This document shows, one piece after another, positions 1,800 to 21,731 of a stretch of DNA of 28,226 bases. Position 1 is the first letter of the stretch; each line of letters opens with the position of its first letter. Origin of the DNA: a virus. The translations under genes and the position numbers were made by a program. The notes below the pieces were generated by a model. That model worked only from the letters and a program-made list of their open reading frames with translations. It did not search any database and was not told where the DNA came from. The stretch spans positions 1 to 28,226 of IMG/VR virus record IMGVR_UViG_3300043448_000425; one strand, 5' to 3'.

Positions 1800-1829
1800 G
1801 GTGTATCCTAAGGCGTAACTATTAGCCCG

Positions 1830-1848
1830 TGCCCCATCCAATGGGACA
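1830..1848 (-). promoter_or_regulatory. 5'-end hairpin of the monooxygenase transcript
   Basis: On the minus strand TGTCCCA pairs with TGGGGCA (seven pairs, one T-G) around a five-base loop. The predicted start of transcription (about 1847) is the first base or two of the stem, so the mRNA would begin with this hairpin. Confidence 0.5.
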
Positions 1849-1853
1849 AGACT

Positions 1854-1859
1854 ATTATA
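1854..1859 (-). promoter_or_regulatory. -10 box of the monooxygenase/fmdB unit
   Basis: A perfect TATAAT lies directly after the hsp20 stop codon (1862-1864), followed seven bases later by the hairpin. It lacks the TGn extension and a clear -35 box, so it is the weakest promoter call here. Its position between two genes and before a long leader supports it. Confidence 0.45.
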
Positions 1860-1861
1860 CC

Positions 1862-2284
1862 TTATTTGATTTTAATGGTTTTCGGCTTCTTCTCTTCTGG
1901 GATGATTCTTTCCACATGGATATTAAGAAGGCCGTTCTCCAAGTCAGCACCTGACACCTCCATATATTCTCCAAGAGCAAAGGTACGAGTAAACTTCCTA
2001 GCTGCAATTCCTTTATGAACTACATTCTTAGGAACATCTTCAATATCTCTTTCTCCTTTAATAACAAGAGTGCCATTATCAACTTGTACTGAAATATCAT
2101 CTTTACTAAATCCTGCTACTGCAAGAGTAATGATGTATTCATCTTCATCAATTTGTGCCACATCATATGGTGGATAAGATTGATTAGTTGCTATATTGTG
2201 TACTGAATGTAGGCGATCAAACATATCGTTGAAGCCAATAAAAAAAGGATCTTTAAAAAGATCCATGGTCAAATGTGTTACCAT
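1862..2284 (-). CDS. hsp20: Small heat-shock protein (Hsp20/IbpA type)
   Basis: The 140-residue protein is a full-length small heat-shock chaperone that holds unfolding proteins in the cytoplasm. The N-terminal segment DLFKDPFFIGFNDMFDR is the IbpA-like arm. The alpha-crystallin domain spans about 40-128, with AVAGFSKDDISV, GTLVIKGER and ENGLLNIHVER. The tail ends IKIK, matching the IxI motif that docks on neighbouring subunits. The ATG at 2284 follows AAAAGGAGATAAA, a near-ideal ribosome site. Hsp20 genes are well known in cyanophages, usually linked to capsid folding or stress. This copy stands alone with its own promoter, a structured leader and a terminator-like hairpin in codons 7-16, suggesting post-initiation control. 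Confidence 0.93.
   Translation of the reverse strand: MVTHLTMDLFKDPFFIGFNDMFDRLHSVHNIATNQSYPPYDVAQIDEDEYIITLAVAGFSKDDISVQVDNGTLVIKGERDIEDVPKNVVHKGIAARKFTRTFALGEYMEVSGADLENGLLNIHVERIIPEEKKPKTIKIK
2240..2264 (-). terminator. Intrinsic-terminator-like hairpin inside the 5' end of hsp20
   Basis: On the minus strand GGATCTT (2264-2258) pairs with AAGATCC (2253-2247) around a four-base loop, followed at once by seven T residues (2246-2240). This is the layout of a rho-independent terminator, though the stem is only moderately GC-rich. It lies within codons 7-16, so ribosomes translating hsp20 would prevent it from folding. It could act as a translation-sensitive attenuator, or merely reflect codons for a conserved DLFKDPFF motif. 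Confidence 0.45.
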
Positions 2285-2308
2285 TTTATCTCCTTTTAAG
2301 CGAGTAAA
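2285..2308 (-). promoter_or_regulatory. Possible RNA thermometer over the hsp20 ribosome site
   Basis: In the leader TTTACTC (2308-2302) can pair with GAG-A-TAAA (2292-2285), seven pairs with one bulged A and a nine-base loop. This would mask GAG of the AAGGAG ribosome site and the bases just before the ATG. Weak, bulged, AU-rich stems of this kind are typical of simple RNA thermometers in small heat-shock genes. Function is inferred only. Confidence 0.35.
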
Positions 2309-2310
2309 TT

Positions 2311-2343
2311 AATATACGGGCCCCATTTGGCGACCCGTATATT
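2311..2343 (-). promoter_or_regulatory. Strong 5'-leader hairpin of hsp20
   Basis: AATATACGGG (2343-2334) pairs with CCCGTATATT (2320-2311), ten perfect pairs. The inner part can add TC and CC pairing with GG and GG around a bulged G and an AAAT loop. The predicted transcription start (about 2337) falls inside the 5' arm, so at least the ACGGG/CCCGT core is transcribed at the very 5' end. Confidence 0.55.
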
Positions 2344-2372
2344 ATTATAGCAAATATTAAAAGATATGTCTA
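2344..2372 (-). promoter_or_regulatory. hsp20 promoter
   Basis: The minus strand has TAGACA (2372-2367), a 17-base spacer, then TATAAT (2349-2344) preceded by TGC, so it has a near-consensus -35 and a full extended -10. The -35 overlaps the stop codon of the upstream lysine-rich gene. This is one of the best promoters in the window. Confidence 0.75.
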
Positions 2373-2564
2373 CTTCTTTTTTGTAGTTTTCTTTGCAGTT
2401 GTCTTTTTGACTGGAGCCTTCTTTACTGCTGGCTTCTTTACTGCTGGCTTCTTCTTAGCTGGCATTACCTTTTCCTCCTTATCAATTTCCTCAAGGAACG
2501 CATCTGCGTCCAAAACTGGTGATGGAAATCCAAACCATTGCTTAAATCTTTTCCTTAGCGACAT
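2370..2564 (-). CDS. Small protein with a histone-H1-like lysine/proline/alanine tail
   Basis: The 64-residue protein has an N-terminal half of about 33 residues (MSLRKRFKQWFGF, then an acidic FLEEIDKEEK) joined to a tail rich in KKPAVKK and KKTTAKKTTKKK repeats. Such tails are seen in histone H1 and in bacterial H1-like proteins, where they bind DNA or RNA without sequence preference. Here it may neutralise packaged or replicating phage DNA; that is inference. The ATG at 2564 has a perfect AAGGAGGT ribosome site that lies in the last codons of the upstream glycosyltransferase frame, with one base between the genes. The tail codons form short tandem DNA repeats, so its length may vary between relatives. 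Confidence 0.75.
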   Translation of the reverse strand: MSLRKRFKQWFGFPSPVLDADAFLEEIDKEEKVMPAKKKPAVKKPAVKKAPVKKTTAKKTTKKK

Positions 2565-2565
2565 T

Positions 2566-3693
2566 TTAAACCTCCTTTCCTATTATATCACTTGCGCCTT
2601 CGGCAGGAGTCGAACCTGCGACCAAGACCTTAGAAGAGTCCTGCTCTGTCCTCTGAGCTACGAAGGCATCTTGAAAGTAGGAATCTTCTTTAATTTTATT
2701 AACAATATAATTGCCATCTGGGATAGCCATTCTTACTTTCTTCCAAGGTATATTATACTTCTCAAAAGTAAGTCTGTAAATACCCACGTCATATTTATGA
2801 GATTCAATTTCATAAATATATGTATTTTGGTTGGCAAATAAACAATTAAATAATGATGATCCACTTTGAACTACAATGTGACTGGACTCCTGTACTATTT
2901 TAATTTGTTCTAATACTGAATGATTTTCAAAATATATTGTCTCATATCCAATTGAAGTCATATATTCAATTAAAGAGTCTTCATTTTTTAATATCCTGTC
3001 TCCAAAATTTTTTCTGGCTATATAAACTTTTCTATTTTTTGTATTATATTTAGGAGCCCACTCCAACAGTAGATCAACCCTTGTTTCCATAGATTCTTTA
3101 GTATGAGTTATACAAGGCTCATGTGGAACATGGCTCCTCAGATACATTTTTTTAGGATATGCCCTTGTTAAATTTTCATAAAAAAGGTTATCAATGTTAT
3201 CATAAAAAAAATAACCAGACTTAGGAACCATTTCTAAAAAGTCTTTAGATGTACTTGGAAAACATACGTAGTTAATTTTTTCAAAATCTAAAAGTTGTTT
3301 GAAAGAATGTGATCTGTTTGCCTCATCACTATCTTCCCATCCGTAAGGCAATCTTGTTTGCGGATTCCAATCATCCTGTTTGTCGCATACAACAACTAAC
3401 ATAAAATCTTTTTTATGTTTTTTTAAATATAAAATATTAGTAAAAAATTCCATCATATTATGAAAATATTTTTCTATATATGGTATTACGTATACGTCTT
3501 TATGCAAATTAATATTCATATCTTCTTTAAAATAAGGGTAAGGTATCCAATTTCTATTGTGGGGAACTCTTCTGGCACCTGCCCTGGTTGGGTCTGCCGT
3601 GTTTATAATTTGCTGCTTATTTACATACGTTGGCTTTGCAATTTGTAAAATAAAAGAACGATCCGATACTGGGATTATATCTAATATGTTCAT
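2566..3693 (-). CDS. GT61/DUF563-like glycosyltransferase whose 3' coding end contains a tRNA
   Basis: The 375-residue frame resembles GT61/DUF563 glycosyltransferases. It has a variable N-terminal half, then KVYIARKNFGDR near 225, and an HIVVQSGSSLFNCLFANQ segment near 275-290 followed by TYIYEIES. This is the family's 'may-be-the-donor-site' loop (usually H-G-A...PGT..IE) in altered form: the usual H-G-A is replaced by QSGSS, so the fold is clearer than the activity. It probably adds a sugar to a virion or surface glycan. The last 35 codons run straight through the tRNA-Arg gene (residues AFVAQRTEQ to STPAEGA are tRNA read as protein) and stop at 2566, one base before the next ATG. The original gene may have ended near residue 340. 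Confidence 0.7.
   Translation of the reverse strand: MNILDIIPVSDRSFILQIAKPTYVNKQQIINTADPTRAGARRVPHNRNWIPYPYFKEDMNINLHKDVYVIPYIEKYFHNMMEFFTNILYLKKHKKDFMLVVVCDKQDDWNPQTRLPYGWEDSDEANRSHSFKQLLDFEKINYVCFPSTSKDFLEMVPKSGYFFYDNIDNLFYENLTRAYPKKMYLRSHVPHEPCITHTKESMETRVDLLLEWAPKYNTKNRKVYIARKNFGDRILKNEDSLIEYMTSIGYETIYFENHSVLEQIKIVQESSHIVVQSGSSLFNCLFANQNTYIYEIESHKYDVGIYRLTFEKYNIPWKKVRMAIPDGNYIVNKIKEDSYFQDAFVAQRTEQDSSKVLVAGSTPAEGASDIIGKEV
2582..2590 (-). promoter_or_regulatory. Extended -10 box just after the tRNA, before the H1-like gene
   Basis: TGATATAAT lies between the 3' end of tRNA-Arg and the AAGGAGG ribosome site. A start about 2575 would give a leader of about ten bases with the ribosome site at its 5' end. 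It lets the H1-like gene be expressed independently of the tRNA-carrying transcript. No -35 box is visible because the tRNA occupies that space. Confidence 0.45.
2595..2667 (-). tRNA. tRNA-Arg, anticodon UCU
   Basis: Read on the minus strand, the 73-base sequence folds as a complete cloverleaf. The acceptor GCCTTCG pairs with CGAAGGC. The D arm contains AGCTCAG...AGAGC. The anticodon stem GGACT/GGTCT closes the loop CTTCTAA, giving anticodon UCU. The T arm is GCAGG-TTCGACT-CCTGC and the discriminator base is G. CCA is not encoded. It reads AGA, the favoured arginine codon of this AT-rich phage and a rare one in GC-rich hosts, the usual reason for a phage to carry it. It lies wholly inside the open reading frame of the upstream glycosyltransferase. 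Confidence 0.95.
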
Positions 3694-13968: not shown

Positions 13969-14768
13969 AAGCTTGGAACCTCATATGGCTCTATCTGAAC
14001 TTCTCCAGCTTCTCCTGCCCAACATTCTTTTTTAATAGGACAACTCTTACAGGCATAAGATGTTTTTGCAAATGGCCTCATAGGAAGTCCGCCATCTTTA
14101 AAATTATCATAAACCTCACACAGCCATAAAAATAAATCATCAATAATTTTTTTATTTTTTTCTGTTAACTGAATTGGTATTAAAAGAATTTCTTGTGTAT
14201 TTTTATTTTCATATAAGAAAAAGGCTTCTTTAACATTACGCAACTTCATGTAAGTTAGTAATTGTAGCATGTGGTTAGCTGATGGAGACATCTCTGCCTG
14301 TCTTGTATCCCAAACCTCTTGCTTAGCAGTTTTAATTTCTCCAATAACTTCTTCATCATCCCAATTAATTACTAGGTCTATGAATCCACGAATAGGAGGA
14401 TATTCATTTGTTATTTCTATTTCAGTTTTAACATCTTTTAAAGAATTAGTTTTAAACAAGTCTGATGATTGACTTGATATAAGCTTTTGAAGTCTGTCGT
14501 GTGCTTGAGTTCCTTGGGCCATATTAGCAACTGCTTGTGCATCATTGCTATCTATAAAATGTGCCCCACTAAATGCCATATACCAATACCTTGGACAATT
14601 ACCTTGCCCATAACCAAAACTGCTTGGGCTAAATGATTTTTTAGTCATTGATCCATCTGGTCTTTTTGTTGCTAAGTAAGCGTCGTCAAGCAGTTTAGCA
14701 AATTCTTTTACATCAAACTTTCCTTCATATTTTTTAAACTTAAGATTTTTTACTATATCTCTAGCCAT
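13965..14768 (-). CDS. Cas4/RecB-like PD-(D/E)XK nuclease with probable 4Fe-4S cluster
   Basis: The protein is 267 residues if it starts at ATG 14768, giving MARDIVKNLKF. The nuclease core reads RGFIDLVINW (metal Asp), then EEVIGEIKTAK (ExK) near residues 120-145, with HMLQLLTYMKL after it (the QxxxY of RecB-type nucleases). One Cys in GNCPRYWYM near 57 and three in CKSCPIKKEC near 250 match the cluster Cys of Cas4/AddB. Known members are 5'-3' exonucleases that process ends in recombination. No CRISPR array is present here, so a replication role is likelier. An earlier start at 14789 (AAGGG three bases upstream) is possible. Confidence 0.8.
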   Translation of the reverse strand: MARDIVKNLKFKKYEGKFDVKEFAKLLDDAYLATKRPDGSMTKKSFSPSSFGYGQGNCPRYWYMAFSGAHFIDSNDAQAVANMAQGTQAHDRLQKLISSQSSDLFKTNSLKDVKTEIEITNEYPPIRGFIDLVINWDDEEVIGEIKTAKQEVWDTRQAEMSPSANHMLQLLTYMKLRNVKEAFFLYENKNTQEILLIPIQLTEKNKKIIDDLFLWLCEVYDNFKDGGLPMRPFAKTSYACKSCPIKKECWAGEAGEVQIEPYEVPSL

Positions 14769-15246
14769 TTGGAACCCACAACCTTTCATTTCCCTTATTA
14801 TGATATCTAGCCATAACAAATAATAGATCTGATAGTCTATTTAAGTATTTAGGAATAATCATGTTTATATTTTCTACTGCCCAAACTCTACGTTCTGCTC
14901 GTCTTACTATGCTTCTAGCATTATGAATTGGACCTGTTGGCAAAACAAAAGATCTTAATGGCTCCAAGTATTCATTATAATCATCAATTACGCTTTCTAG
15001 CCAAACTATTCTATCTTCATTTATTTTTAATTCAGATCTGGCAAGATCGGCACCGAGATCAAATAAATCATTTTGAATATATTGAACTATATCATTGTAA
15101 GGAATAAGTCCAATAGCTGAATTTGCTTCATCTACTGCACCTATTGCTTCTATTACTGGATCTGTTTTAAAAGTTCTTTCACGATTTGCAAGGTCTGTAA
15201 ACCCTTCATCTCCAGTCTTTGTATAAATTTTACTTAATATTACCAT
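14761..15246 (-). CDS. pduO: ATP:cob(I)alamin adenosyltransferase (PduO type)
   Basis: The 161-residue protein has all the motifs of the PduO family: IYTKTGDEGFTDL at residues 6-18, EAIGAVDEANSAIGL near 34-48, LPTGPIHNARSIVRRAERR near 103-121 with the ATP/corrinoid Arg and Glu, and PKYLNRLSDLLFVMAR near 132-147. The enzyme attaches a 5'-deoxyadenosyl group to reduced cobalamin, making adenosylcobalamin. Its ATG overlaps the stop of the 43-residue membrane protein (TAATG) and follows AGGGGG. In a phage the likely need is a B12-dependent class II ribonucleotide reductase, which is not in the window. The Gly-Gly seen in many family members (LPGG) is Thr-Gly here. Confidence 0.93.
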   Translation of the reverse strand: MVILSKIYTKTGDEGFTDLANRERTFKTDPVIEAIGAVDEANSAIGLIPYNDIVQYIQNDLFDLGADLARSELKINEDRIVWLESVIDDYNEYLEPLRSFVLPTGPIHNARSIVRRAERRVWAVENINMIIPKYLNRLSDLLFVMARYHNKGNERLWVPNG

Positions 15247-18254: not shown

Positions 18255-18468
18255 TTTCTACTTCTCCTTTTACTGGTCTGATATCAAAAGTAAATGTTGG
18301 TCCGCCTTCAGCATCTCCATCATAATCAATTAATATTTCTTCTTGGACAGATCCAGCTTTTAAAAATACATCAACTGGAATTGTCTGTGGCCCACTATGG
18401 CCAATAATTGCAGAAATGATTTTGCTTGCACTCATCATCTTCTGAATTTCATCTTTATCTACTGTCAT
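18232..18468 (-). CDS. Small acidic protein between dnaE and mazG
   Basis: The 78-residue protein starts ATG 18468, overlapping the dnaE stop (ATGA), and runs 23 bases into mazG. It has a helical first third (DEIQKMMSASKIISAII) and a beta-rich centre (EEILIDYDGDAEGG) with an acidic, disordered tail. I do not recognise it. Its consistent coupling to the polymerase gene suggests a replication accessory. Confidence 0.65.
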   Translation of the reverse strand: MTVDKDEIQKMMSASKIISAIIGHSGPQTIPVDVFLKAGSVQEEILIDYDGDAEGGPTFTFDIRPVKGEVENEQPNSN

Positions 18469-21400
18469 TTTATTTCCTTTACCATTAGTGTGCCATCGTC
18501 TAATTTAGATAATGTAACTTTACATTTCATTCCATCTCTCATTTTTGCAAGAGAAATTTTATACATTGTTGGGAAAACAATTACTCGTGTTAGATTTTTA
18601 TTCTTGTCTGAGAGAATAATATGGCTCATGGTTTTACCAGCTTTGGTCTGATAAGGTGTAAAGTTTACCACAATATACTCATCTTCTTCAAGATCATATT
18701 CTTTTCTATATAAATAATCTACAAAAAGATCTGCGCCTTTAGGGTCTATATCGCTAACTTTTATATACCTAGCAATACGGTTATCTCCTACTAATATAAA
18801 ATACATTTGATTAGTTTCTATCTGTGTCTGTTCATTATGGAATAAACCAATAGATCCTGTTTCATCTACTAATTCTACACGTGCCCAACCAGTTCCACGT
18901 TTAATATTTTTAACCATACCGAACATAACAAATGAACCAAGTGGATCAAAATCTTCAATTGGTCTACATTGTGCTTTAATTCTTGGAGGCAAATCAATAC
19001 TAAATGTTGGTATACTTAAGTATTCATAATAATTATCTTTTTCATTACCAGACCTAGGGTTGTCTTCAAACGCTGCTCCGCCAATAAAATTAAGAGCAGC
19101 AATAGCTCTACTATTAATACCACTTTTTTTAACGGAGGCTTTTTTAATAAAATCTGCATAACTAGAATATGGTCTTTTTTCAATTATTTTATTTGCGATG
19201 CTATCAGAAATATATTTAATTTCTGCTAGTCCAAATTGAATAGCATCACCTTTTAATGAAAAATATGGCTCTGATTCATTTATATGTGGAAGCTTAATTC
19301 TTAGCCCAAGCCGCTTTGCCTCAATTAAATATTCAGTCCTAGTATCTTTATTGCCTTCATTTTTAAGTAGTGAAAACATGAACTCAAGAGGATAATAATG
19401 CTTGAGCCAAGCAGTATAATAAGAAAGAAGAGAGTAAGCAACAGCATGAGAACGATTGAAAGAATAACCTGCATGAGCCTCAAACATATGCCAAAGCGTT
19501 TCCGCTTGTTTCTTAGAAATGTGTTTTGAAGCGCCATCAATAAATTTATCCTTGAACTGGTCGAATTCTCTTGCATCTTTCTTTTTACCAATGATCTTGC
19601 GAACCTTATCGGCCTCTGACCAAGTCATCCCTCCTAGGTGTACGCATGCTTGCATAACCTGCTCTTGGTATATAATAACACCATATGTATTCTGAGTAAA
19701 GGGCTGCATAATTGGATGAACATATTGAACTGCTTCATTCCCGTGCTTTCTTTTAATATAAGAGGCACCCACAGTATTCATTGCTCCTGGACGGACTAGC
19801 GCATTTGACGCAGCAAGATCTTCAAATTTATCTACTCCCATTTTCATAAGAAGATTGGTGTACGGAGTTGCTTCAGCCTGAAATACTCCTTTAGTATATC
19901 CTTCGCTTAAAGTTTTATACACATCTTTATCATCTAAGGGTAGCTTAGACAAATCAATATTTTTATTATATCTTTCTGAAATTGATTTTAAAGTATCAGA
20001 TATTACTGATAGAGTTTTTAATCCTAAGGCATCTAGTTTAATTAGACCAATATCAGCAACCGTATCCATATCATAGGCTACAACTGGTATGCGACCAGAT
20101 ACTTTATCGTTTGCATCTTCACGAGATTCTACTGGTGCATATTTCCTAATATCTTCTTTAGCAACCACAACTCCTGCAGCATGAACTCCAACAGATCTAA
20201 TTCGCCCACGCAATTTTTCTGCAAGCCACAACACTTCTGGATATTTTGCTCTAAATTCTTTTGTGTTAGGGGACTCAGCAAAATCTTCAAAAGTATCTAC
20301 GGATTTTAATGCACGATTAACATCAGAGAGAGGAACCATAAATACACGAGCAGCATCACGAACTACACCTTTATCTTTAAAATAAGTAAATGTAGAAATA
20401 GATGCAACATGTTTAAATTTCTTTTTTAAATAATCTTTTACTTCTTTACGACGACGGTCTTCAAAATCTGTATCAATATCAGGAAAGTCATTACGTTCTG
20501 GGTTGATAAATCGGAAGAATAGTAAGTCATATTTAATTGGATCTACATCTGTAATTCCAAGGGCATAACAAACAAGAGAGCCTGCTGCAGAACCACGACC
20601 AGGACCAACCATAATATTATTTTGCTTGGCCCAATTAATCATGTCTGCAACTACAAGAAAATAAGACGCAAAGGATTTATCCTTAATTACAGATAACTCT
20701 TCTTCAAGCCTATCAATATAAGTCTTATCCTTGTCAAGGGATAGCCTTTTAAGGCCCTCTAAGGCCATCTGGCGAAGCTTTTGATCTGCATTGGTCTTAG
20801 GTACTGGGAGGAGGTCTAATCCCTGGTCAAATCTATATTCTTCAATTTTATTTGAAATCTCTTGGGTATTATCAAATATATCAGTTCTATTAATTCCAGC
20901 TTTTTTAAAATCAAATTCTATTTCTTCACGACTCTGTATAAATAAATTCATGCCCTGGAATGTCATTCTTCGATCTGGATATAAGTAATTAAATCTTTCA
21001 CCCATATCTTTAATTTGTCTAGACATATCAAAGTCTGCTTCTTTATCTGCTTTTGGATTTGTAGATAATATTAGAACAGCCTCTTCTAGTATTCTATCTT
21101 GTTCTTTAGCAAAATGGGCATCGCCAGTTGCTACAGACTTTATTTTTAATTCGTCTGCTAATTCTAAAAGTTTTTCATTTACTTCTTTAGGATTATGAGA
21201 TTGTACTTCAACGTAAAAATCTTCCCCAAAAGTTTGCTTAAAATCTTTGAGTATAAGCTTGGCTTCTGAGAATTCCTTACGTTCAATAGCTTTACTAATA
21301 AGGCCATTAAGACATCCAGAAAGAACGATAATACCTTCCGCATATTCTTTTAATACCTCTCTATCGATTCTAGGCTTATGATAAAATCCTTCATTCCAAG

Positions 21401-21731
21401 CAAGTTCTTGGAGAATATGGATATTGTCTAAACCTTTTTGATTTTTTGCTAGTAATATTATGTGGTTATATGCCTGTATACTTTTATCTGTAGCTGAAGA
21501 CCTGTCAAACCTATCTGTTGGAGCAATGTAAGCTTCGACTCCAAGTATTGGCTTTATGTCTTGATCTTTACAAGCAATTTGAAATTCTCTATGAGATGAA
21601 AGAGTTCCATGGTCTGTGATTGCTATTGATTTTTGACCAGCATCTTTTGCTGCTTTAACTAACTCGGCAGGAGAGTTAAGTCCATCCATAAGGGAATAAT
21701 ATGAATGCACATGTAAGTGTGTAAATGACAT
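18465..21731 (-). CDS. dnaE: DNA polymerase III alpha subunit (DnaE)
   Basis: The 1088-residue protein is a C-family polymerase close to full cellular length (about 1160). The PHP domain opens THLHVHSYYSLMDG and has AITDHGTL and LGVEAYIA. The palm has GPGRGSAAGSLVCYALG and FPDIDTDF near residue 415 with the catalytic Asp pair; SVGVHAAGVVV and YGVIIYQEQVM follow. Helix-hairpin-helix and an OB-fold region (GTGWARVELVDETGSIGLF) sit near the C-terminus. It replicates the phage chromosome. Most phages use A- or B-family enzymes; C-family is less usual. Proofreading may come from PHP, since no separate exonuclease gene is seen. The ATG at 21731 has GGCGGAGAG upstream. Confidence 0.97.
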   Translation of the reverse strand: MSFTHLHVHSYYSLMDGLNSPAELVKAAKDAGQKSIAITDHGTLSSHREFQIACKDQDIKPILGVEAYIAPTDRFDRSSATDKSIQAYNHIILLAKNQKGLDNIHILQELAWNEGFYHKPRIDREVLKEYAEGIIVLSGCLNGLISKAIERKEFSEAKLILKDFKQTFGEDFYVEVQSHNPKEVNEKLLELADELKIKSVATGDAHFAKEQDRILEEAVLILSTNPKADKEADFDMSRQIKDMGERFNYLYPDRRMTFQGMNLFIQSREEIEFDFKKAGINRTDIFDNTQEISNKIEEYRFDQGLDLLPVPKTNADQKLRQMALEGLKRLSLDKDKTYIDRLEEELSVIKDKSFASYFLVVADMINWAKQNNIMVGPGRGSAAGSLVCYALGITDVDPIKYDLLFFRFINPERNDFPDIDTDFEDRRRKEVKDYLKKKFKHVASISTFTYFKDKGVVRDAARVFMVPLSDVNRALKSVDTFEDFAESPNTKEFRAKYPEVLWLAEKLRGRIRSVGVHAAGVVVAKEDIRKYAPVESREDANDKVSGRIPVVAYDMDTVADIGLIKLDALGLKTLSVISDTLKSISERYNKNIDLSKLPLDDKDVYKTLSEGYTKGVFQAEATPYTNLLMKMGVDKFEDLAASNALVRPGAMNTVGASYIKRKHGNEAVQYVHPIMQPFTQNTYGVIIYQEQVMQACVHLGGMTWSEADKVRKIIGKKKDAREFDQFKDKFIDGASKHISKKQAETLWHMFEAHAGYSFNRSHAVAYSLLSYYTAWLKHYYPLEFMFSLLKNEGNKDTRTEYLIEAKRLGLRIKLPHINESEPYFSLKGDAIQFGLAEIKYISDSIANKIIEKRPYSSYADFIKKASVKKSGINSRAIAALNFIGGAAFEDNPRSGNEKDNYYEYLSIPTFSIDLPPRIKAQCRPIEDFDPLGSFVMFGMVKNIKRGTGWARVELVDETGSIGLFHNEQTQIETNQMYFILVGDNRIARYIKVSDIDPKGADLFVDYLYRKEYDLEEDEYIVVNFTPYQTKAGKTMSHIILSDKNKNLTRVIVFPTMYKISLAKMRDGMKCKVTLSKLDDGTLMVKEIK

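What the first reader, a model, noticed from the sequence alone, without database searches (positions are those of the whole stretch)
2240..2372. Layered RNA control of hsp20: 5' hairpin, SD-masking stem and translation-sensitive terminator-like hairpin
The leader has a strong hairpin at the RNA start, then a weak bulged stem that masks the ribosome site, then, in codons 7-16, a seven-pair hairpin with seven U that looks like an intrinsic terminator. A ribosome started only when the weak stem melts would prevent the terminator from forming. This would couple heat sensing to transcription read-through, a logic I do not know for any phage heat-shock gene.
Basis: partly seen in the sequence, partly recalled or inferred. 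Interest (0 to 1): 0.6.

Follow-up and report, generated by a model that had tools for sequence, protein, structure and literature searches.

The report
Phage heat-shock gene with RNA thermometer
The mRNA of this virus's small heat-shock gene starts with a ROSE-type RNA thermometer like those of bacteria, found here on 329 of 330 phage heat-shock genes compared, and in this virus's own group it is followed inside the gene by a strongly conserved hairpin that looks like a stop signal for transcription.

Summary
All three RNA elements are present at the stated coordinates, on the minus strand. The sensor hairpin has the UCGCU motif with a bulged G opposite the Shine-Dalgarno. Rfam ROSE_3 (RF02523) matches its whole length at 31.9 bits, below the gathering score of 43. 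Hairpin I shows massive compensatory change in relatives. The sensor motif precedes 329/330 distinct phage hsp20 genes in five lineages, against 5/527 control genes. I found no report of phage ROSE elements in the open-access papers searched.

The terminator-like hairpin (codons 7-16) is restricted to the window's clade. On one genome it is no more than chance gives. Across the clade it is under nucleotide-level selection: T/C wobble bases of five focal codons (8, 12, 14, 15, 16) changed 4 times against about 71 expected, while neighbouring wobble bases vary freely. That it terminates transcription, and only when ribosomes are absent, is plausible but untested; its invariant core allows no covariation test.

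Verdict: phage-borne ROSE-type thermometer (about 0.88); added translation-sensitive terminator (about 0.4).

The parts
2344..2372 (-). promoter: TAGACA, 17 nt, TGcTATAAT (extended -10)
   Evidence: 11/12 consensus match; TATAAT 55-63 nt before the start codon in 112/112 distinct relatives
2316..2338 (-). hairpin I at the RNA 5' end, with bulged G (ACGGGUC-G-CC-AAAU-GG-GGCCCGU); the DNA palindrome extends to 2343..2311
   Evidence: fold; all 10 pairs of hairpin I have compensatory changes in relatives; aligned to hairpin I of Rfam ROSE_3
2284..2308 (-). hairpin II: UUUACUC-G-CU-UAAA-AG-GAGAUAAA, ROSE motif UCGCU opposite the Shine-Dalgarno AGGAG
   Evidence: fold; ROSE_3 alignment; motif in 329/330 phage hsp20 leaders vs 5/527 control genes
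2279..2339 (-). whole ROSE-like leader (full-length match to RF02523 ROSE_3, 31.9 bits, below the gathering score of 43)
   Evidence: matched at 51.5 bits by the clade covariance model R1
1862..2284 (-). hsp20, small heat-shock protein, 140 aa
   Evidence: Pfam HSP20 69.4 bits; PHROG 432 Hsp20, 142.8 bits
2247..2264 (-). terminator-like hairpin inside codons 7-13, core GGAUC/GAUCC
   Evidence: synonymous wobble sites of codons 8 and 12 almost frozen in 118 genes
2238..2246 (-). U-tract TTTTTTTAT (codon 13 third base to codon 16)
   Evidence: codons 14 and 15 are TTT in 118/118 and codon 16 ATT in 117/118, though neighbouring Phe codons 5, 10 and 18 are 45-53% TTC

Best explanation
The leader is a phage-borne, two-hairpin ROSE-type RNA thermometer. 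Hairpin I sits at the 5' end of the RNA and is a stable scaffold or 5' cap. Hairpin II holds the Shine-Dalgarno in an imperfect helix with the UYGCU motif and a bulged G, and loosens when the cell warms, so that the phage small heat-shock protein is made on heat. In the window's clade a second layer follows: a 5-8 bp hairpin and U-tract in codons 7-16, kept by selection on the nucleotides. Most likely it stops or pauses RNA polymerase on transcripts that no ribosome has entered, and a translating ribosome prevents it from forming. Shown by comparison: the anatomy, conservation and covariation of the leader, and selection on the in-gene element. Inferred: heat melting, termination and the coupling. 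Sub-estimates: ROSE-type thermometer 0.88; in-gene element acts in termination or pausing 0.4.
For: Full-length ROSE_3 match with the bulged G of both hairpins in register. Hairpin I and II pairs: 94.7% of cells paired, 120 double-changed cells vs 28 +/- 4 in shuffles, covariation score 0.472 vs 0.198, slid controls at most 0.144. Model R1, built from 21 leaders of the clade, finds only hsp20 leaders in 345 kb, including cyanophage S-SM2 (28.1 bits) and Methylophilales phage Melnitz-3 (26.5). UYGCU/SD motif in 329/330 distinct phage hsp20 leaders vs 5/527 other genes. Same two-hairpin architecture as the tested Pseudomonas ibpA thermometers (PMC3669281). In-gene element: 4 T/C wobble changes at codons 8, 12, 14, 15, 16 vs 71 expected; d>0 in 34/35 loci at this place and only 4 times elsewhere in 195 kb; no such site in pelagiphage or C48C1-type genes; no general 5'-end synonymous conservation in four other lineages.
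Against: The Rfam gathering score is not reached (31.9 vs 43). Energy models keep hairpin II folded to 42 C. The in-gene hairpin core is invariant, so there is no covariation support, and its upper pairs are broken in many relatives (clade with Asn at codon 11). The frozen AAT codon 11 and GTA/ACA codons 2-3 are not explained by the terminator model. The terminator is AU-rich and moderate. A ribosome would have to start within about a second of the SD emerging to beat RNA polymerase to the U-tract (inference). No expression data exist.
Confidence: 0.8

Rival explanations
1. ROSE thermometer only: the terminator-like hairpin is a by-product of the conserved peptide (M/L)DLF(K/N/R)DPFFIG and of AT-rich codon use, with no effect on transcription.
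For: The peptide alone gives d>0 in 8-30% of synonymous reshuffles. A single window gives about 0.8 such sites by chance. No covariation. Absent from other ROSE-bearing phage lineages.
Against: Codons 14-15 are TTT in 118/118 while Phe codons 5, 10 and 18 are mixed; 4 vs 71 expected wobble changes at five focal codons. The few GAC exceptions re-register into an equally stable hairpin.
Confidence: 0.25
2. The frozen codons 8-16 are a primary-sequence motif: a pairing site for a small RNA, a protein or Hfq-type site on the U-tract, or a polymerase pause, rather than a terminator.
For: Conservation is of sequence rather than of variable pairs. Codon 11 AAT is frozen although not paired in its clade.
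Against: The variable positions are the ones a hairpin plus U-tract tolerates: loop (codon 10) and spacer (codon 13). No other complement of the element exists in the window; the only match is the element itself.
Confidence: 0.2
3. The 5' hairpin is an operator or a terminator of the upstream gene rather than part of a thermometer.
For: It is a near-perfect DNA palindrome overlapping the start site.
Against: Its stem sequence varies freely with compensatory changes, as an RNA stem does and an operator does not. No U-tract follows. It aligns to hairpin I of ROSE_3.
Confidence: 0.04

Closest known systems
Short two-hairpin ROSE-like thermometers of Pseudomonas ibpA (Krajewski et al. 2013, PMC3669281)
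   Same: About 60-nt leader of a small heat-shock gene, two hairpins, U(U/C)GCU motif opposite the SD, stable hairpin I, start codon outside the sensor hairpin.
   Different: Phage-encoded; AT-rich; in this clade followed by a conserved terminator-like hairpin in codons 7-16. Thermoregulation not measured here.
Rfam RF02523 ROSE_3
   Same: Full-length alignment, both bulged G positions in register, at the same distance from the start codon.
   Different: 31.9 bits against a gathering score of 43; shorter linker after the SD.
Bacteriophage lambda cIII RNA thermometer
   Same: A thermometer in a phage mRNA leader.
   Different: lambda cIII uses two alternative conformations and gives less translation at higher temperature (PMC4166951). 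Unrelated sequence and gene.
Ribosome-dependent attenuators and synthetic temperature-responsive terminators (Rossmanith et al. 2018, cited in PMC9611254)
   Same: A terminator whose formation depends on ribosomes or on temperature.
   Different: Here the candidate lies inside the main coding sequence behind a natural thermometer, and its function is untested.

Membership tests
ROSE-type RNA thermometers | 5' leader of a small heat-shock protein gene | tested here: met
   hsp20 by Pfam and PHROG; ATG 2284, predicted RNA start about 2338
ROSE-type RNA thermometers | U(U/C)GCU motif paired with the Shine-Dalgarno in the last hairpin, with a bulged G | tested here: met
   UCGCU opposite AGGAG; 329/330 phage hsp20 leaders
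ROSE-type RNA thermometers | one or more stable hairpins 5' of the sensor hairpin, structure conserved by compensatory change | tested here: met
   all 10 pairs of hairpin I with changes on both sides
ROSE-type RNA thermometers | temperature-dependent opening and translation | not testable with these tools
   energy model inconclusive
Rfam RF02523 ROSE_3 (formal membership) | score at or above the gathering threshold of 43 bits | tested here: not met
   31.9 bits, E 1.8e-4 to 1.2e-6 by search size; so called ROSE-like, not filed as an RF02523 member
FourU thermometers | four consecutive U paired with the SD | tested here: not met
   SD partner is CUCGCU
Synechocystis hsp17-type thermometer | a single short hairpin | tested here: not met
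   two hairpins, both conserved
Intrinsic transcription terminators | GC-containing stem directly followed by a U-tract | tested here: met
   7 bp with 3 G-C, T7, d = 15.4; conserved in the clade
Intrinsic transcription terminators | RNA 3' ends at the U-tract | not testable with these tools
   no transcript data
Ribosome-mediated attenuators | terminator whose formation depends on translation | not testable with these tools
   position inside codons 7-16 fits; no separate leader peptide

The most novel reading that the evidence does not exclude
A natural thermo-attenuator in a phage: a ROSE thermometer decides whether a ribosome starts, and the ribosome decides whether a terminator in codons 7-16 forms, so that temperature sets transcription read-through as well as translation of hsp20. 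In the cold the phage would make a roughly 100-nt terminated leader RNA, possibly itself a regulator.
Probability: 0.35. Interest if true: 0.75.

Novelty: new variant of a known kind. Interest (0 to 1): 0.62.

Why it matters
[quoted passage not shown] This work shows the same device on nearly every phage hsp20 examined, in freshwater phages, pelagiphages, T4-like cyanophages and others, with different promoters in front of it. That suggests phages carry a ready-made temperature sensor together with the chaperone gene, independent of the host's heat-shock regulators. It makes phage responses to temperature directly testable. If the in-gene terminator works as proposed, it would be a natural case of one RNA thermometer controlling both translation and transcription.

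Tried and rejected
Rfam search for known families: only ROSE_3 was meaningful; preQ1-II, DUF2815, cspA and Histone3 hits are weak chance matches.

Melting of the SD stem by nearest-neighbour folding at 10-47 C: no clear melting; inconclusive.

Pairing of the U-tract with the AAUAAAA between SD and start codon: predicted probability only 0.04-0.08; rejected as main reason for the frozen U-tract.

General 5'-end codon conservation as the cause: rejected, since Phe 5, 10 and 18 vary and four other lineages show no such effect.

Programmed frameshift at T7: considered from the sequence; the shifted frame meets a stop within a few codons, and the base before T6 varies (A, T, C); not pursued.

Covariation of the in-gene stem: not informative, core invariant.

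RNAalifold on the plain MAFFT alignment of leaders failed because hairpin I arms were misaligned; replaced by the covariance-model alignment.

A literature search for phage ROSE elements and phage hsp20 thermometers found none; subscription papers and preprints are not covered.

Full report
What is there. The gene is hsp20, 2284..1862 on the minus strand, with the HSP20 domain of Pfam (69.4 bits) and the phage Hsp20 family of PHROGs. A TAGACA-17-TGcTATAAT promoter lies at 2372..2344, so the RNA should begin near 2338 (inference). The transcript then has hairpin I (2338-2316), hairpin II with the Shine-Dalgarno (about 2308-2284), the start codon at 2284, and, in codons 7-15, GGATCTTTTTAAAGATCC followed by seven T (2264-2240).

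What the first two hairpins are. Rfam finds one meaningful family: RF02523 ROSE_3, full length (model 1-69 at 2339..2279), 31.9 bits, E 1.8e-4 in a 1-kb search, below the gathering score of 43. In the alignment both hairpins are in register, including one unpaired G in each. Hairpin II carries UCGCU opposite AGGAG, the U(U/C)GCU motif that defines ROSE elements (PMC3669281). The same paper describes two-hairpin, 61-62-nt ROSE leaders of Pseudomonas ibpA in which hairpin II melts locally, hairpin I stays closed, and deletion of single bases in the sensor helix locks the device. The window's leader (about 54 nt) has that architecture. I call it ROSE-type by anatomy, not a formal RF02523 member.

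Conservation. In 112 distinct close relatives from viral contigs, TATAAT 55-63 nt before the start and the UYGCU/SD hairpin are present in all 112, and the hairpin I pattern in 108. On a covariance-model alignment of 64 leaders, 94.7% of cells pair, with 120 double-changed cells against 28.3 +/- 4.4 in shuffles and a covariation score of 0.472 against 0.198; versions slid by 1-3 columns reach at most 0.144. That alignment was fitted to the structure, which inflates the counts somewhat, but hairpin I stems switch between AU, UA, GC and CG at most positions. The model built from 21 leaders of the clade hits only hsp20 leaders in 345 kb, among them cyanophage S-SM2 and Methylophilales phage Melnitz-3. 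Searching whole records, the hsp20 leader is the best hit in the four relatives and in S-SM2, Melnitz-3 and pelagiphage HTVC103P; HTVC008M and Phosso gave only weak hits elsewhere, and Syn1 and C48C1 gave none at this sensitivity.

Reach. A simple motif test (T[CT]GCT, 3-13 nt, [AG]GG, 3-13 nt, start) is met by 127/127 leaders of the window's clade, 43/44 pelagiphage-type, 36/36 C48C1-type, 65/65 S-SM2-type and 58/58 Melnitz-type leaders, against 5 of 527 other genes of the same loci. The regular expression was chosen after seeing some of these leaders, but the control rate of 0.9% makes the contrast safe. Bacterial homologues found by protein similarity (Alteromonas and others) mostly show the same motif by eye. 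I found no paper on phage ROSE elements; [quoted passage not shown]

The third hairpin. On one genome it is not remarkable: it is the only site with d>0 in the window, but shuffled windows have 0.83 on average. The comparison changes the picture. In 118 distinct genes of the clade, Phe codons 14 and 15 are TTT without exception, codon 16 is ATT in 117, and Asp codons 8 and 12 are GAT in 114 and 116. The Phe codons at 5, 10 and 18 are mixed TTT/TTC with 10-18 parsimony changes each. Over all T/C wobble columns, the five focal codons show 4 changes where 71 are expected from the other columns (the five codons were picked because they lie in stem core and U-tract and were seen to be conserved, so the Poisson figure overstates significance; the Mann-Whitney value is 4e-4). 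The free positions are those a hairpin plus U-tract tolerates: loop (codon 10), top of the stem (codon 9) and spacer (codon 13). The rare GAC variants re-register into an equally stable hairpin. d>0 is kept in 113/118 genes against 8-30% in synonymous reshuffles. In 35 non-redundant loci (195 kb) 34 carry the site and only four other d>0 sites exist. Pelagiphage and C48C1-type genes have none, Melnitz-type 0/80 and S-SM2-type 3/80, and none of these lineages shows general 5'-end synonymous conservation.

Limits. The five core pairs hardly vary, so covariation is silent. In the sub-clade with Asn at codon 11 only the five-pair core remains, and the frozen AAT there, like GTA and ACA at codons 2-3, is not explained. 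My terminator score re-implements the published formula with ViennaRNA energies. Relatives are not independent; the parsimony counts correct for this only in part. Energy models do not show melting of hairpin II between 10 and 42 C, a known weakness for ROSE helices held by non-canonical pairs.

Mechanism. Most likely: translation of the phage chaperone is held down in the cool and released on warming by hairpin II. In this clade a terminator- or pause-like element just inside the gene acts on RNAs without a ribosome. Step one rests on homology and covariation. Step two rests on selection and anatomy only. Term-seq in E. coli shows that the rpoH thermometer leader has discrete 3' ends (PMC7815308), so such coupling has precedent as a possibility.

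Host. The polymerase III alpha subunit is closest to Streptomyces phages (57% identity) and the tRNA-Arg to tRNAs of actinobacteriophages, so the host may be an actinobacterium (inference). If so, this ROSE-type element works outside the proteobacteria in which most were described.

Noticed in passing
2370-2564, minus strand: Small lysine-rich protein with repeats AKKKPAVKKPAVKKAPVKK directly upstream of hsp20, histone H1-like in composition; no Pfam or PHROG match.
   Followed up: partly
14761-15246, minus strand: Cobalamin adenosyltransferase (Pfam PF01923, 155 bits) in a phage, with no PHROG family: a candidate auxiliary metabolic gene.
   Followed up: partly
18465-21731 and 2594-2667, minus strand: DnaE-type polymerase closest to Streptomyces phages (57%) and a tRNA-Arg(TCT) similar to those of actinobacteriophages, pointing to an actinobacterial host.
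   Followed up: partly
1826-1858, minus strand: Right after hsp20, another TATAAT followed by a strong hairpin TGTCCCAT-TGG-ATGGGGCA before the next gene; 5'-end hairpins may be a general feature of this phage's transcripts.
   Followed up: no
L070 and L037, about 75 nt upstream of the hsp20 start: A strong intrinsic-terminator-like hairpin ends just before the hsp20 promoter, with the -35 TTGACA inside the hairpin.
   Followed up: no
window 2316-2338 vs 2284-2308, and relatives: Both hairpins share the same local design, a bulged G in YC-G-CY opposite RG-GR; hairpin I looks like a copy of the sensor hairpin without an SD function.
   Followed up: partly
L330-L409 (C48C1-type phages): Here the ROSE-like leader follows a T4-late-type TATATATA/TATAAATA box instead of TATAAT: the same RNA device under a different promoter class.
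   Followed up: no
codons 2, 3 and 11 of the clade's hsp20 genes: GTA (117/118), ACA (62/62) and AAT (66/66) are also frozen at synonymous sites and not explained by the terminator model.
   Followed up: no
L412:1161-1225: A second weak ROSE_3 match (24.9 bits) about 490 bases downstream of the hsp20 start in an Alteromonas genome, perhaps before a second small heat-shock gene.
   Followed up: no
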